Origin: Candidatus Poseidoniia archaeon
Lineage (GTDB): Archaea > Thermoplasmatota > Poseidoniia > MGIII > CG-Epi1
NCBI GenBank assembly: GCA_029936395.1
Contig: JAPYSW010000007.1
Coordinates: 1 to 41,428, forward strand
Reading direction: 5' to 3'
Length of the DNA stretch: 41,428 bases
Position numbers and translations under genes: made by a program. Shown one piece after another: positions 27,081-32,016 of this stretch. Within the stretch, counting starts at the first letter, position 1. Each line of letters opens with the position of its first letter. Below the pieces are notes generated by a model. That model had not been told where the DNA came from, did not search any database, and saw nothing but the letters and a program-made list of their open reading frames with translations.

Positions 27081-29174
27081 TTAGTTATCTTTATCGTCGT
27101 TCATTTTCTTTCGAAGCTGCTCTATCGAAACTGAAACCTTTTTGTCTGGAATAGAATCGGTAGGCTGCGAAAATTCCTCTACTTTATCTACATCTAAACT
27201 GAAATCTTCAATGTCCTCGACCGCTGGAGTAAAATCTTCAACATCTGTAATGGAAGACGTCTCTTCATTTTCTGATACTGGTTTAGAAATAGCAAAATCC
27301 CCCTCTCCTCCTTGACCTGATGGAACGCCCCCTTCTTCAATATCTGAGATTAGTTGTTCTCTTTTATCTGAACTTCCTTCTTCTCCAATAGCTTCCAAAA
27401 CTTCTTCAGTAGACATTTCAGAATCGTCTTCTACAATATCTTCTTCAGTTTCTATTAATTCATCTAAATCCAATTCGATTTCTTCATTATACAGAAACTC
27501 AGGCATTTCTGGAGCTACAGCACCTGGCGTAGCTATTGCTTCATAAAAGTCAAAAGCAGTTCTTTCAACTTCACCCACAAAATTAGATAGCTCTTCTTCA
27601 TCTCCATCGATTTTAGAATAAATTGCAGCCATTCGATCTGAAACAAAAGCAAAATAATTAGGTGCGACTTCAAATGCTTTTTCAGTCCAAGTAAAAGGAA
27701 TCCATGCCATTACTTGTTTATTCTTTCTGTCAACTGTTATTTTGAGCTGAGGACCAGGATATACGATACCTCCACAGGAAACATCATAATTATTCATATA
27801 AGCCAATACTTTGTAGACATCTTCTTGTCTAGGAACTTCTCTTAAATTGTATTTAGCTTCAAAATAAAAATTAACTCCTCGATAATTCATGAAAATTTCG
27901 GGTTGACCAGAACCTTGAACCGGATTTGACTTAACTTCTGAATCGCCGAATAAAGAACCCATTATTGAATCACTCCACCCTTGTCTTACTTGCTCAGGTG
28001 CATCATACTTGAGTACTATATCTTTGTTCTTTGAACGGAATTCTCTTAACGATTTAGCGTGTGCACTTAATTTCAAACCAGAAGCCATCTCACAAAGAAT
28101 CCATAATGCGTAAATGTCAGTCATTTTTTGAGTTTGTACTAATACTGTCTCTTCATAATATGACTGATACTCATCTAAAAACTCTCTCCAAAGAATTGGT
28201 AAATCCCTGTATGCTCGGTTTCTGCTCCATGTTTTAGCTTCAATAATTGCCTCACGATTAATCAATCTTTCTTCTTTTCTTGTATCTTTTGCCTTTGGAA
28301 TTAACTCAGCTAACTTTCCATCTCCTAAAACTCCCTTATGCAATTTACATGCTAAATCCAAGCGATCTAATTGTTCTTTAGTTGAGTCATCTAGAGGTTG
28401 ATATTCTTTACCATAAATAGTTGCCCAAGCTTTCTTTTCACGTTCACGACGGTCCATTTCATCTCTAAAGAATATAGCTTCAATGAATACTTCCATGTGG
28501 AATTTTACTAATAATATATTTGTGGGTGTACTCCACTTCCTTTTACGTATATCAGTAACATGTGCTGTAGCGTATTCAGTCCCTTTTTGAGCACGCGCTA
28601 GGGCTGTTTTCTGCCATCTTACGGCACCCCTTATCTGCGACTTCATTGTTTTACGCTGAACTTCAACTTTGTAAGTATATGCTCCTTTTTTGATATCGTT
28701 TGTTACTTTCAATAACTTACTAGAAATTTCGAGTAACTTTTCAATATTCAATAATATTTTTTCTTCTTCAATTGAAGAAGTTCCACCTGGATACATACCT
28801 TCGGGAGGATCATCAGCTCCAGAATTCTTAACTAAATTAGGTATATGCTCATCCCTTAGTTGTTTGAATTTTTCATAATCCAACATCCTAGGGGCAATGA
28901 CGACTTCTAACTTATTCGAAATGGAGTTTCCTGATTTATTATGTAAAGAAATTGTGTTAGTACCAATGTAATCAGGAACTACAAATTGCATAGAATGGGT
29001 TGTATTTGATCTAACAGGAGGTAGAGAATCTAATTTAGCAGTTCCCATTCGAATATGAATATCTTCTAAAGCTCTGAAAGCATTGATATTGAGCATTACT
29101 GACTCACCCTCAGTTAAATTAACTGAATGTCCTTCTGGCAACTTGAGCTCTATCGTTGCGTCTGGTAAACTCAT
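27081..29174 (-). CDS. DUF2357-like/PD-(D/E)XK-like nuclease, McrC-type partner, with long acidic C-terminal tail
   Basis: QPEIFMNYRGVNFYFEAKYNLREVPRQEDVYKVLAYM fits [D/E]...ExK...QxxxY; NKLEVVIAPRMLDYEKFKQL and MTDIYALWILCEMASGL resemble DUF2357 landmarks; start codon lies 1 nt after the stop of the upstream AAA gene (TGATATG). Confidence 0.6.
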   Translation of the reverse strand: MSLPDATIELKLPEGHSVNLTEGESVMLNINAFRALEDIHIRMGTAKLDSLPPVRSNTTHSMQFVVPDYIGTNTISLHNKSGNSISNKLEVVIAPRMLDYEKFKQLRDEHIPNLVKNSGADDPPEGMYPGGTSSIEEEKILLNIEKLLEISSKLLKVTNDIKKGAYTYKVEVQRKTMKSQIRGAVRWQKTALARAQKGTEYATAHVTDIRKRKWSTPTNILLVKFHMEVFIEAIFFRDEMDRREREKKAWATIYGKEYQPLDDSTKEQLDRLDLACKLHKGVLGDGKLAELIPKAKDTRKEERLINREAIIEAKTWSRNRAYRDLPILWREFLDEYQSYYEETVLVQTQKMTDIYALWILCEMASGLKLSAHAKSLREFRSKNKDIVLKYDAPEQVRQGWSDSIMGSLFGDSEVKSNPVQGSGQPEIFMNYRGVNFYFEAKYNLREVPRQEDVYKVLAYMNNYDVSCGGIVYPGPQLKITVDRKNKQVMAWIPFTWTEKAFEVAPNYFAFVSDRMAAIYSKIDGDEEELSNFVGEVERTAFDFYEAIATPGAVAPEMPEFLYNEEIELDLDELIETEEDIVEDDSEMSTEEVLEAIGEEGSSDKREQLISDIEEGGVPSGQGGEGDFAISKPVSENEETSSITDVEDFTPAVEDIEDFSLDVDKVEEFSQPTDSIPDKKVSVSIEQLRKKMNDDKDN

Positions 29175-29175
29175 A

Positions 29176-32016
29176 TCAACCGAATACGCTTAGACCTGGT
29201 GAATCTACCATCTTCTCTAAAGTAACAGTAATACTATGGGTACTTCCCAAGACTTCTTGAGATTTTAACATTAAACACTTCAATTCATTTCGTTCTAAAC
29301 CTTCTAATGCTGGCATTATGTTAGATTTAATGACGTCCCCAAGTGCCCGATCTAAATCATATTGTCCTATCGAATTAAAGACAGTTAACATGGAATCAAT
29401 AATAACTGCAGGTCCTATCTTTCTATAAGTTCGAACGCCTCTAGGTAGTTCGTCGTCCCGTGACGATGGAAGTTCCTCTTCTTCCAAGAAATTCATTAAT
29501 TTATTGAAAGCTTTGAACATTATACCACCTTCATCATAAAAATCAAACATTTCTTTTGCATACCAATCCTCATCAGTTTCAGGACGTTCTGGAGCAATAC
29601 CTAACTTATTTAATTTATTGAATACAAAAATAGGCATACGTCTGTACTCGTCCTCTCGGTCAGGTAATCCTATTTCTACAAAAGCAAATCTACGCATCAA
29701 TGCATGACCTACATTGAATAATGTATTCTTATCCTGTGTATTCATAGTTCCAATAATTCTAAACTCCGGAGGCATCATAAATGGAGCTCCATTAGTCTCT
29801 TTAGCTGTCAATAAAGCTTGTTTATCTCTGTATTCAAATACAGTAAATAATTTACCAAAAGCTTCATCAATATTTGCTCTATTAAACTCATCAATTACAA
29901 GATAATGGGGTTTACCAACCTCTTGCATTGTTTTTTCACAAATTTTAGCAGAATCTGAAACATATCCATCTTTGAAATAATAACCACCTGAATCATCAGG
30001 AGAAATACCTCCAATGACTTCGAAATTAGACCATTCAGCATTCGCTGTAACTATTGTATAATTAGGAATCATACTACCATCTTTAGCTTCATTGACTCCA
30101 CAAAGTTGGCTTAATAGTAAATTTGCCAGAGCAGTCTTACCAGTACCTGGATCTCCGTAAAGCATTATATTCCTACCTGACTTCAAATGTGTTACAGTTT
30201 GATTAATTGTATCTTCAGTAGTAGAATAATATTTGGATAACTCCTCATAATCTACAGTATAATCTACCTTCATAGCCTTACGTATTACTGGAGTTTGGGC
30301 TAAATCTTCCTTGAGCTCTTTCTCAATATCACTAAAATCAACTCCATAATTAGCATCTTCTGTAGGTTTGATATCAATTGTAGCCTCTGGGAATTCTGAA
30401 AGAAGGCGATCCATAGCATCTTCTAAAGTAATATCTTTAGGTAAAGCAGGTGCTTTATCTTCAGAAGTAGTCTCATCTTCTTCAGGTGTAAATGAAGAAT
30501 CAAATGGATCTGAAGGAGGGCTGCTCAACTGCATTTCCATCATACGATCTCTAAACTTTTCAGTTCCAAACTTTATACCATACCAAACTGCCCCGCCAGC
30601 TACAAAAAGTGGAATGATTAACATAACCCAACCAATTGTATCATCGGGTGCTGAAATATCTTTTTGAGAAAGTAAAGCCGGTGCAATCATAGTTGCAAAC
30701 AAAGTACCAACGCCTACAGCGAATAAACCGAAATAAGCCAGACCTTCCATACTCTGCTCCGATTTTCTCTTACGATAAAACAAGAAAATTCCAAGGAAAG
30801 CAATAGATACAAACAAAACGGTTAGAATAATATCGCCTTGTTCAAAATAAATATTAGCTCGATTTCTTATTAAATTCCAAACTAAAACAAAAAATTGGAA
30901 ACCAAGACCCAATAAAATCATAAGGAAATACTTCGCTTCTTCCATATCTTTTAGTCTTATTGTTTGAATAATATATGCAGCAATACCAAATAAAAGAGCA
31001 AGAAGACCAGCTAGTAATATTATCATCTCAATAGGTTGCAAATTTACTAGAGCTCTTGTGGGAATTCCGTTGGATGCGTAACATGCATTGAATATTGATA
31101 AATCGCTACTTCCATCAAACATTTTACTACAATTAAACCAAGGACCGCGAACCCAATTATGATGCAAGGCTGCAAAAACCAAAGAACCAGCACCAATAAA
31201 AGAATATATTGTACTCAACGGAGCTTCACTTATATCTTTACCAGTAACCGCATAAAGGAATACAATATACGAAACTACTATCACAACTAAAGCTGCAGTA
31301 GCTCCCAAAGTACTGTATAATGAACCTAACGCTCCTGCAGGATATAATTTTGAAATACAACCAGTTGTACTATCATCAGTACATATCTTATCATCATTAA
31401 CTGGTGAATAACCACCGCCAATATAGGCATAAACTATAACCATAATCAAAATACAAAATATTAACGGAGCCATGATATTACTATCATTTATGCGTCTAGC
31501 CTGAATGAATATACAAAGTGCTAAAAATACTATCAAACCCAAAACACTTTGATATTGATTAGCTTTAATATTAAAATTGTCAGTCTCCCAACTGGATGTT
31601 AATACTAAAGGACAACCATCAGGATCATTAGCTGCATCGGGATTAATCCAATCAGGGCATCTAAGTGGATTGCGATCATCAATATAGGCATCTAAATTTT
31701 CAGAAGTACCATTCATACCTCCTGCACCTTTCGACGTAGCATCAGGTCCAGGAATATCTGCTGTAGTGTAATAAAGTAATAAACCAAGGAGAGCAACAGC
31801 AGCTAGAAACTGCAACGCGGGTAAATAGAAACTCGCCCTACTTCTCTTAATAATTGGAGGCACTGAAGTAGATTTAGGAGTGCCAGACTCTTTGGAGACT
31901 GGGGTTTCGACAGAAGAAGGGCCTACATCCTTTGCACCCGATAAATTTACACCACAAATATTACAAAAAGGTGCATTATCCTCGACCTCTACAGCACAGA
32001 CTGGACACTTTTTCAT
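29176..32016 (-). CDS. Membrane McrB-like AAA+ NTPase with N-terminal zinc ribbon and about 10 TM helices
   Basis: N-terminal CPVCAVEVEDNAPFCNICG; many hydrophobic helices; Walker A GDPGTGKTALANLL; Walker B YLVIDEFNRANIDEAFGKLFTVFE; IIGTMNTQDKNTLFNVGHALMRRFAFVEI (MNxxD-type McrB signature). Confidence 0.8.
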   Translation of the reverse strand: MKKCPVCAVEVEDNAPFCNICGVNLSGAKDVGPSSVETPVSKESGTPKSTSVPPIIKRSRASFYLPALQFLAAVALLGLLLYYTTADIPGPDATSKGAGGMNGTSENLDAYIDDRNPLRCPDWINPDAANDPDGCPLVLTSSWETDNFNIKANQYQSVLGLIVFLALCIFIQARRINDSNIMAPLIFCILIMVIVYAYIGGGYSPVNDDKICTDDSTTGCISKLYPAGALGSLYSTLGATAALVVIVVSYIVFLYAVTGKDISEAPLSTIYSFIGAGSLVFAALHHNWVRGPWFNCSKMFDGSSDLSIFNACYASNGIPTRALVNLQPIEMIILLAGLLALLFGIAAYIIQTIRLKDMEEAKYFLMILLGLGFQFFVLVWNLIRNRANIYFEQGDIILTVLFVSIAFLGIFLFYRKRKSEQSMEGLAYFGLFAVGVGTLFATMIAPALLSQKDISAPDDTIGWVMLIIPLFVAGGAVWYGIKFGTEKFRDRMMEMQLSSPPSDPFDSSFTPEEDETTSEDKAPALPKDITLEDAMDRLLSEFPEATIDIKPTEDANYGVDFSDIEKELKEDLAQTPVIRKAMKVDYTVDYEELSKYYSTTEDTINQTVTHLKSGRNIMLYGDPGTGKTALANLLLSQLCGVNEAKDGSMIPNYTIVTANAEWSNFEVIGGISPDDSGGYYFKDGYVSDSAKICEKTMQEVGKPHYLVIDEFNRANIDEAFGKLFTVFEYRDKQALLTAKETNGAPFMMPPEFRIIGTMNTQDKNTLFNVGHALMRRFAFVEIGLPDREDEYRRMPIFVFNKLNKLGIAPERPETDEDWYAKEMFDFYDEGGIMFKAFNKLMNFLEEEELPSSRDDELPRGVRTYRKIGPAVIIDSMLTVFNSIGQYDLDRALGDVIKSNIMPALEGLERNELKCLMLKSQEVLGSTHSITVTLEKMVDSPGLSVFG

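What the first reader, a model, noticed from the sequence alone, without database searches (positions are those of the whole stretch)
27081..32016. Membrane-tethered McrBC-like system: zinc ribbon + about 10 TM + McrB-type AAA+, coupled to a DUF2357/PD-(D/E)XK-like nuclease
Seen: a 946-aa protein has a two-CxxC zinc ribbon, a long stretch of hydrophobic helices and then an AAA+ module with IDEFNRANIDEAFGKLFTVFE and GTMNTQDKN...LMRRF. One nucleotide later (TGATATG) a 697-aa protein starts. It contains PEIF...FYFEAKY...QEDVYKVLAYM, consistent with a PD-(D/E)XK active site, and DUF2357-like landmarks. Established: McrB-family AAA+ proteins pair with McrC/DUF2357-type nucleases in type IV restriction and related systems, and their N-terminal specificity domains are usually soluble nucleic-acid readers. 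Inference: here the reader position is replaced by a membrane module. The nuclease engine would therefore sit at the inner membrane, perhaps acting on incoming DNA or RNA or coupled to an envelope signal. I do not know a described McrBC type with this architecture. The surrounding genes are core housekeeping (gap, GINS, endA), so a conserved cellular role is also possible.
Basis: partly seen in the sequence, partly recalled or inferred. Interest (0 to 1): 0.8.

Follow-up and report, generated by a model that had tools for sequence, protein, structure and literature searches.

The report
Membrane-embedded McrBC-type nuclease pair
An uncultured ocean archaeon carries a two-gene DNA/RNA-cutting machine of the McrBC family whose motor protein is built into the cell membrane instead of carrying a soluble DNA-reading domain, and it is kept as a strongly conserved core gene pair rather than as a come-and-go defence island.

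Summary
In a Marine Group III (MGIII) archaeal genome, 29176-32016 (-) encodes a 946-aa protein: N-terminal zinc ribbon, 10 predicted TM helices, C-terminal AAA+ domain. One base downstream, 27081-29174 (-) encodes a 697-aa partner. The AAA+ is McrB-type, not MoxR: best solved-structure hits are McrB, every catalytic residue mapped in E. coli McrB is kept, and a tree puts it with haloarchaeal-plasmid and Archaeoglobus-provirus McrB-like proteins whose next gene is a nuclease. The partner matches no Pfam model alone, but profile comparison makes it a McrC homologue: Ig-like domain, DUF2357-like helical region, PD-(D/E)XK domain. The pair is adjacent in every MGIII contig spanning the site, always between GINS and gap. 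A third MGIII genus has that neighbourhood without the pair. dN/dS is 0.04 overall and 0.013 in the partner's core domains. Neither the nuclease nor the TM module was found outside MGIII. A paralogous membrane McrB without a nuclease lies elsewhere in the genome. A membrane-tethered McrBC-like system is therefore supported as architecture; substrate, trigger and role (defence or housekeeping) remain inference. Caveat: the catalytic lysine of ExK is Gln in three of six genomes of the second genus.

The parts
29176..32016 (-). Membrane McrB-type AAA+ protein, 946 aa (P0002)
   Evidence: ORF; McrB best in PDB and NCBIfam; McrB catalytic residues all kept
31954..32007 (-). Zinc ribbon, residues 4-21 (CPVC...CNIC), predicted cytosolic
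   Evidence: Weak Pfam Zn_Ribbon_1 match; four Cys invariant in 19 relatives
30577..31827 (-). 10-TM module, residues 64-480, predicted N-in/C-in, with three large outer loops; the pair C296/C312 is present or absent together
   Evidence: Hydropathy, low-confidence AF2 helices, loop cysteines; no match outside MGIII beyond the zinc ribbon
29179..30249 (-). McrB-type AAA+ domain and C-terminal region, residues 590-946
   Evidence: PF07728 3.2e-18; EcMcrB/TgMcrB 1e-17 to 1e-15
30133..30156 (-). Walker A GDPGTGKT, residues 621-628
   Evidence: Aligned to EcMcrB G201-T208
29878..29904 (-). Walker B and McrB-specific N/R: YLVIDEFNR, residues 705-713
   Evidence: D709 E710 N712 R713 = EcMcrB D279 E280 N282 R283
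29731..29742 (-). McrB signature NxxD (N759-T-Q-D762)
   Evidence: = EcMcrB N333/D336; the following R-S of the family consensus is K-N here
29686..29703 (-). Sensor II/arginine finger ALMRRF, residues 772-777
   Evidence: R775 R776 = EcMcrB R348 R349
27081..29174 (-). McrC-type partner, 697 aa (P0001), start one base after the AAA+ stop
   Evidence: ORF; hhalign to haloarchaeal McrB partner proteins Prob 95, E 4.7e-8
28890..29174 (-). Predicted Ig-like beta-sandwich, residues 1-95
   Evidence: AF2 pLDDT about 64-83 in most of this stretch; Foldseek hits to Ig/CARDB-type domains, best 1.1e-4
28230..28886 (-). DUF2357-like region, residues 97-315, with invariant IRG.V.W.KT (181-190; 28605-28634)
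   Evidence: Region alone versus McrC-like profile E 6.4e-7, 0 of 100 shuffles reach the score
27615..28193 (-). PD-(D/E)XK nuclease domain, residues 328-520
   Evidence: Domain versus DUF2357/PDDEXK_7 profile E 4e-4, 0 of 100 shuffles; pairwise to provirus PD-(D/E)XK protein
27852..27860 (-). ExK motif E439-A440-K441 (E invariant; K is Q in 3 of 17)
27795..27827 (-). Motif IV helix QEDVYKVLAYM, residues 450-460
   Evidence: Aligns with DIYKMHTY of PDDEXK_7; Q450, D452, Y454, K455 invariant

Best explanation
A two-gene McrBC-family machine in which the McrB-type AAA+ protein is a polytopic membrane protein. Shown by sequence: McrB catalytic set, McrC-type partner, closely spaced syntenic genes, strong purifying selection. 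Inferred: the AAA+ domains form a hexamer (GTP-driven, from the NxxD signature) on the cytosolic face of the membrane; the partner's helical DUF2357-like region plugs the ring and stimulates hydrolysis as McrC does; the PD-(D/E)XK domain cuts nucleic acid brought to the membrane. The ten TM helices, outer loops and cytosolic zinc ribbon take the place of the soluble reader, so they anchor the motor and probably trigger or position it. My preferred role is a standing guard against DNA or RNA entering at the envelope, fixed in the core genome of two MGIII genera; this last step is the least certain (about 0.4 against about 0.3 for a housekeeping role).
For: AAA+: PDB hits are E. coli and Thermococcus McrB at 1e-17 to 1e-15; NCBIfam best is McrB; G201, K207, T208, D279, E280, N282, R283, E298, N333, D336, R348, R349 of E. 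coli McrB are all kept, residues that structures and mutants tie to GTP hydrolysis (PMC6624300, PMC7680126). Tree: 100/100 split of MGIII + provirus + haloarchaeal-plasmid McrB from canonical McrB. Partner: A1 versus McrB-partner profile E 4.7e-8 over residues 86-461, score 65 against at most 29 in 200 shuffles; nuclease part versus PDDEXK_7-type profile E 4e-4; versus the provirus PD-(D/E)XK protein hhalign E 2.3e-5 and BLASTP top of 300 shuffles. Pair: start within one base of the stop, or overlapping it, in 15 of 15 contigs, fixed between GINS and gap in 10 of 10 checked, with an empty site in genus g3. Selection: dN/dS 0.035/0.044, and 0.013 in DUF2357-like and nuclease domains. Membrane.
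Against: The partner reaches no Pfam, NCBIfam, PADLOC or PDB match on its own; homology rests on profile alignments between small families, and the nuclease-domain match alone is modest. The catalytic lysine is Gln in three of six genomes of the sister genus, so cleavage is not certain everywhere (ExQ active sites are described, PMC1913061). Both AlphaFold models are poor (mean pLDDT 50 and 46). A come-and-go defence pattern is absent, which weakens the defence reading. GTP use, nuclease activity and membrane location are untested.
Confidence: 0.65

Rival explanations
1. Housekeeping machine: an McrBC cassette was acquired in the ancestor of two MGIII genera (or lost in the third) and domesticated for a cell function at the membrane, such as chromosome, envelope or RNA turnover, with a duplicated AAA+ subunit and a nuclease that need not cut foreign DNA.
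For: Near-universal and syntenic in g1 and g2, with the missing g1 cases explained by contig gaps; dN/dS 0.013 in core domains; a second membrane McrB paralogue at a fixed place without nuclease; core gene neighbours.
Against: No positive link to any pathway; the nearest relatives found lie on plasmids and a provirus, several beside methyltransferases or restriction genes, which suits defence.
Confidence: 0.3
2. Regulatory or degenerate McrBC: the AAA+ motor and the McrC-type plug remain but the nuclease is inactive or unnecessary, and the complex acts as a membrane remodelling NTPase.
For: K441 is Gln in three genomes; the paralogous AAA+ has no nuclease next to it.
Against: P425, E426, E439, D452 and K455 are invariant and the nuclease domain is among the most constrained parts; K is kept in 14 of 17.
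Confidence: 0.15
3. MoxR/NorQ-type AAA+ chaperone with an unrelated partner.
For: The AAA_5 Pfam family is shared by MoxR and McrB.
Against: McrB, not MoxR, in PDB and NCBIfam; McrB-specific residues; tree; partner is McrC-like, not VWA.
Confidence: 0.03

Closest known systems
McrBC of E. coli K-12 and Thermococcus gammatolerans (type IV restriction)
   Same: AAA+ catalytic residues, NxxD signature, paired downstream DUF2357 + PD-(D/E)XK gene
   Different: N-terminal soluble reader replaced by zinc ribbon and 10 TM helices; partner has an extra N-terminal Ig-like domain and acidic tail; core-genome, MGIII-only; MNTQDKN rather than MNxxDRS
gp03/gp02 pair of Archaeoglobus profundus pleomorphic provirus 1 (BK065154)
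   Same: AAA+ 42% identical over 185 aa; adjacent annotated PD-(D/E)XK gene collinear with P0001
   Different: Soluble N-terminus without TM helices; carried by a provirus
Haloarchaeal-plasmid and Bacillota McrB-like/McrC-like pairs (L101-L122)
   Same: Same AAA+ side of the tree (IDE-NRA-ID, MNTxDK) and homologous partner with RGxxxW motif
   Different: No predicted TM helices except one borderline segment; at least one carries the DUF3578 reader; plasmid contexts, several beside methyltransferases
CoCoPALM systems (PMC11090510)
   Same: McrB-like GTPase fused to a membrane segment
   Different: FtsB-like TM/coiled coil, NxD clade, pilus-factor neighbours; here ZnR + 10 TM, NxxD, core neighbours
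DUF524/PDDEXK_7 (PF04411) proteins with DUF2357 (PMC1913061)
   Same: Order beta domain, helical region, PD-(D/E)XK; YPG after motif IV; association with McrB-type GTPases
   Different: P0001 does not score with the Pfam model

Membership tests
McrB-type AAA+ GTPase | Walker A/B plus N282, R283, NxxD (N333, D336), R348, R349 of E. coli McrB | tested here: met
   All present in P0002 and kept in the MGIII family, apart from one unresolved residue in one MAG
McrB-type AAA+ GTPase | Full consensus MNxxDRS | tested here: not met
   MNTQDKN; the haloarchaeal-plasmid relatives also have K at the R position, so this reads as a subfamily trait; the catalytic N and D are kept
McrB-type AAA+ GTPase | Closer to McrB than to MoxR or other AAA_5 | tested here: met
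McrB-type AAA+ GTPase | GTP rather than ATP hydrolysis, hexamer | not testable with these tools
   Needs protein
McrBC type IV restriction system | Soluble N-terminal nucleic-acid reader on McrB | tested here: not met
   Zinc ribbon + 10 TM instead; readers vary within the family. This is why it is filed as a variant
McrC | DUF2357 region interacting with McrB | tested here: met
   Homology to McrC-like partners E 6.4e-7, 0/100 shuffles; the interaction itself was not tested; no Pfam hit
McrC | PD-(D/E)XK nuclease with catalytic D/E...ExK | tested here: inconclusive
   Motifs II-IV aligned and mostly invariant; fold not confirmed by the model; K to Q in 3 of 17
McrC | Encoded directly downstream of McrB | tested here: met
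   15 of 15 contigs
CoCoNuT | NxD motif instead of NxxD | tested here: not met
   NxxD; CoCoNuTs are also nearly absent in archaea (PMC11090510)
MoxR AAA+ | AAA+ closest to MoxR, with VWA-type partner | tested here: not met

The most novel reading that the evidence does not exclude
MGIII archaea have turned an McrBC cassette into a core membrane machine: two paralogous McrB subunits with about ten TM helices, one with a coupled nuclease, working as an envelope-coupled nucleic-acid processing motor with a cellular rather than anti-viral role.
Probability: 0.3. Interest if true: 0.8.

Novelty: new variant of a known kind. Interest (0 to 1): 0.6.

Why it matters
McrB motors are known with many soluble readers, and the one membrane-linked group found in the literature here has a short FtsB-like fusion. 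A polytopic membrane McrB fixed in a core genome suggests that this defence engine can be re-sited to the envelope and kept under strong constraint. It gives a concrete, testable case of where defence and cell physiology meet in uncultured ocean archaea.

Tried and rejected
MoxR reading: rejected. CoCoNuT membership: rejected on the NxD motif. Direct searches of P0001 in Pfam, NCBIfam, PADLOC, PDB and plasmids gave nothing. Family scans with PF09823 and PF04411 did not call it. AlphaFold of P0001 and of the TM module: low confidence, so Foldseek was used only for the Ig-like domain. Viral contigs: no relative. TM module outside MGIII: only zinc-ribbon matches; none on plasmids. Absence in G003 and G010: explained by a missing contig (gap also missing), unlike G015. 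Comparison of the Ig-like domain with the two McrC-type profiles: no signal.

Full report
Setting. The window is contig 1 of a 1.17-Mb, 93% complete genome. Its nearest named relatives are Marine Group III and Euryarchaeota MAGs, including CG-Epi1.

Observation. The two ORFs are as described. The 946-aa protein P0002 has a four-cysteine ribbon, about ten membrane helices and a C-terminal AAA+ domain. The 697-aa protein P0001 starts one base later. Hydropathy gives nine strict TM segments; the tenth (about 267-290) is seen in the low-confidence AlphaFold model. The loops predicted inside carry more K/R per residue (18 in 139) than those outside (10 in 153), and the cysteine pair C296/C312, in a predicted outer loop, is kept or lost together, which fits an N-in/C-in topology.

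The AAA+ domain. Pfam calls AAA_5. PDB sequence hits are McrB of E. coli (1.2e-17) and the GTPase subunit in 6ut3-6ut8 (1.3e-15), and NCBIfam's best is McrB. Every catalytic residue of E. coli McrB checked is identical in P0002 and kept in the 19-member family, apart from one unresolved residue. Structures and mutants tie these residues to GTP hydrolysis (PMC6624300, PMC7680126). The one departure is MNTQDKN for MNxxDRS, where K is shared with the haloarchaeal-plasmid relatives. A tree separates MGIII, a provirus protein and the haloarchaeal-plasmid proteins from canonical McrB at 100/100 (earlier trees, agree in outline). Branches are long, so exact sister relations are unsure.

The partner. 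P0001 alone hits nothing, nor does its alignment in the PDB search. The proteins encoded after the related haloarchaeal and Bacillota AAA+ genes were collected into a profile. P0001's family aligns with it over residues 86-461 at Prob 95%, E 4.7e-8; the score was 65 in a local run where 200 column shuffles reached at most 29. Split by domain, the DUF2357-like part carries that match (E 6.4e-7; IRGAVRWQKT against the RGxxxW of the McrC-like proteins), while the nuclease part matches DUF2357/PDDEXK_7 proteins (E 4e-4, none of 100 shuffles). The motif order is PEIF, FYFEAKY, QEDVYKVLAYM, YPG, against PDY, FDAKY, DIYKMHTY, YPG in those proteins, as described for DUF524 (PMC1913061). An AAA+/PD-(D/E)XK pair in Archaeoglobus profundus pleomorphic provirus 1 gives the clearest single relative: AAA+ 42% identical over 185 aa and partner collinear with P0001 (BLASTP 2e-4, hhalign 2.3e-5, best of 300 shuffles). 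The N-terminal 95 residues are predicted as an Ig-like sandwich.

Active site. P425, E426, E439, D452 and K455 are invariant in 17 sequences; K441 is Gln in three of six genomes of genus g2. ExQ and migrated-lysine variants of this superfamily are described (PMC1913061), so this weakens but does not exclude catalysis.

Distribution and history. The nuclease was found in 18 of 21 MGIII-family genomes and in none of the other genomes sampled in the class or phylum. Full-length membrane McrB likewise was found only in MGIII; outside MGIII only the zinc ribbon of the TM module was matched. Two of the three missing cases also lack the neighbouring gap gene, so they are best explained by contig gaps. 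The third, G015, of a different genus, has endA-GINS-gap-x300-purB-x850-x369 in the same order with GINS and gap directly adjacent: an empty site. The pair was therefore gained or lost as a unit. A second membrane McrB (P0003, 1029 aa) lies between asnB and a coiled-coil gene in g1 genomes, and in one g2 genome a paralogue lies beyond elp3; none has a nuclease beside it.

Selection. Against the 91-92% identical relative, dN/dS is 0.035 for P0001 and 0.044 for P0002; within P0001 it is 0.013 for both the DUF2357-like and nuclease parts and 0.12 for the acidic tail. dS is high, so these ratios are approximate.

Mechanism. Shown: family, architecture, gene spacing and synteny, constraint. Inferred from McrBC biochemistry: hexameric GTP-driven ring at the cytosolic face, McrC-type plug, nuclease firing on nucleic acid at the membrane. 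Inferred with least support: that the trigger is incoming nucleic acid rather than a cellular signal. The closest relatives on mobile elements favour defence; fixation in the core genome favours a cellular or standing role.

Novelty. A new variant of a known kind: McrBC with a polytopic membrane module. The precedent found for membrane-linked McrB is CoCoPALM (PMC11090510), which differs in motif, membrane segment and context. The literature held here is open-access only, so an unlisted description cannot be excluded, and polytopic McrB fusions outside Thermoplasmatota were looked for only on plasmids, phages and viral contigs.

Noticed in passing
L009:7742-10831 (G000:C4): Second membrane McrB (P0003), same ribbon + TM + AAA+ layout, no nuclease next to it; conserved place in g1, and a paralogue beyond elp3 in one g2 genome.
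   Followed up: partly
L009:10953-13331: Divergent neighbour of P0003: a 792-aa membrane coiled-coil protein ending in a GreA/GreB C-terminal domain (Pfam 9.5e-13), conserved beside it in five other g1 genomes.
   Followed up: partly
L149:10485-13603 (BK065154): Archaeoglobus pleomorphic provirus carries an McrBC-like pair (gp03/gp02) apart from its separately annotated AAA+ ATPase gp10.
   Followed up: yes
L056 / G014:C5:51241-51387: Short fragment of the nuclease gene (residues about 368-416) with a stop inside, apparently a decayed partial copy.
   Followed up: no
L039: A contig binned as Nitrospina holds an 84% identical MGIII nuclease gene, probably a mis-binned contig; its frame runs on past the usual end.
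   Followed up: no
window:27084-27494: Acidic, fast-evolving C-terminal tail of P0001 ending in a conserved short helix (SIEQLRKK in the window protein).
   Followed up: partly
window:782-5917: 1711-aa ORF on the minus strand, not examined.
   Followed up: no
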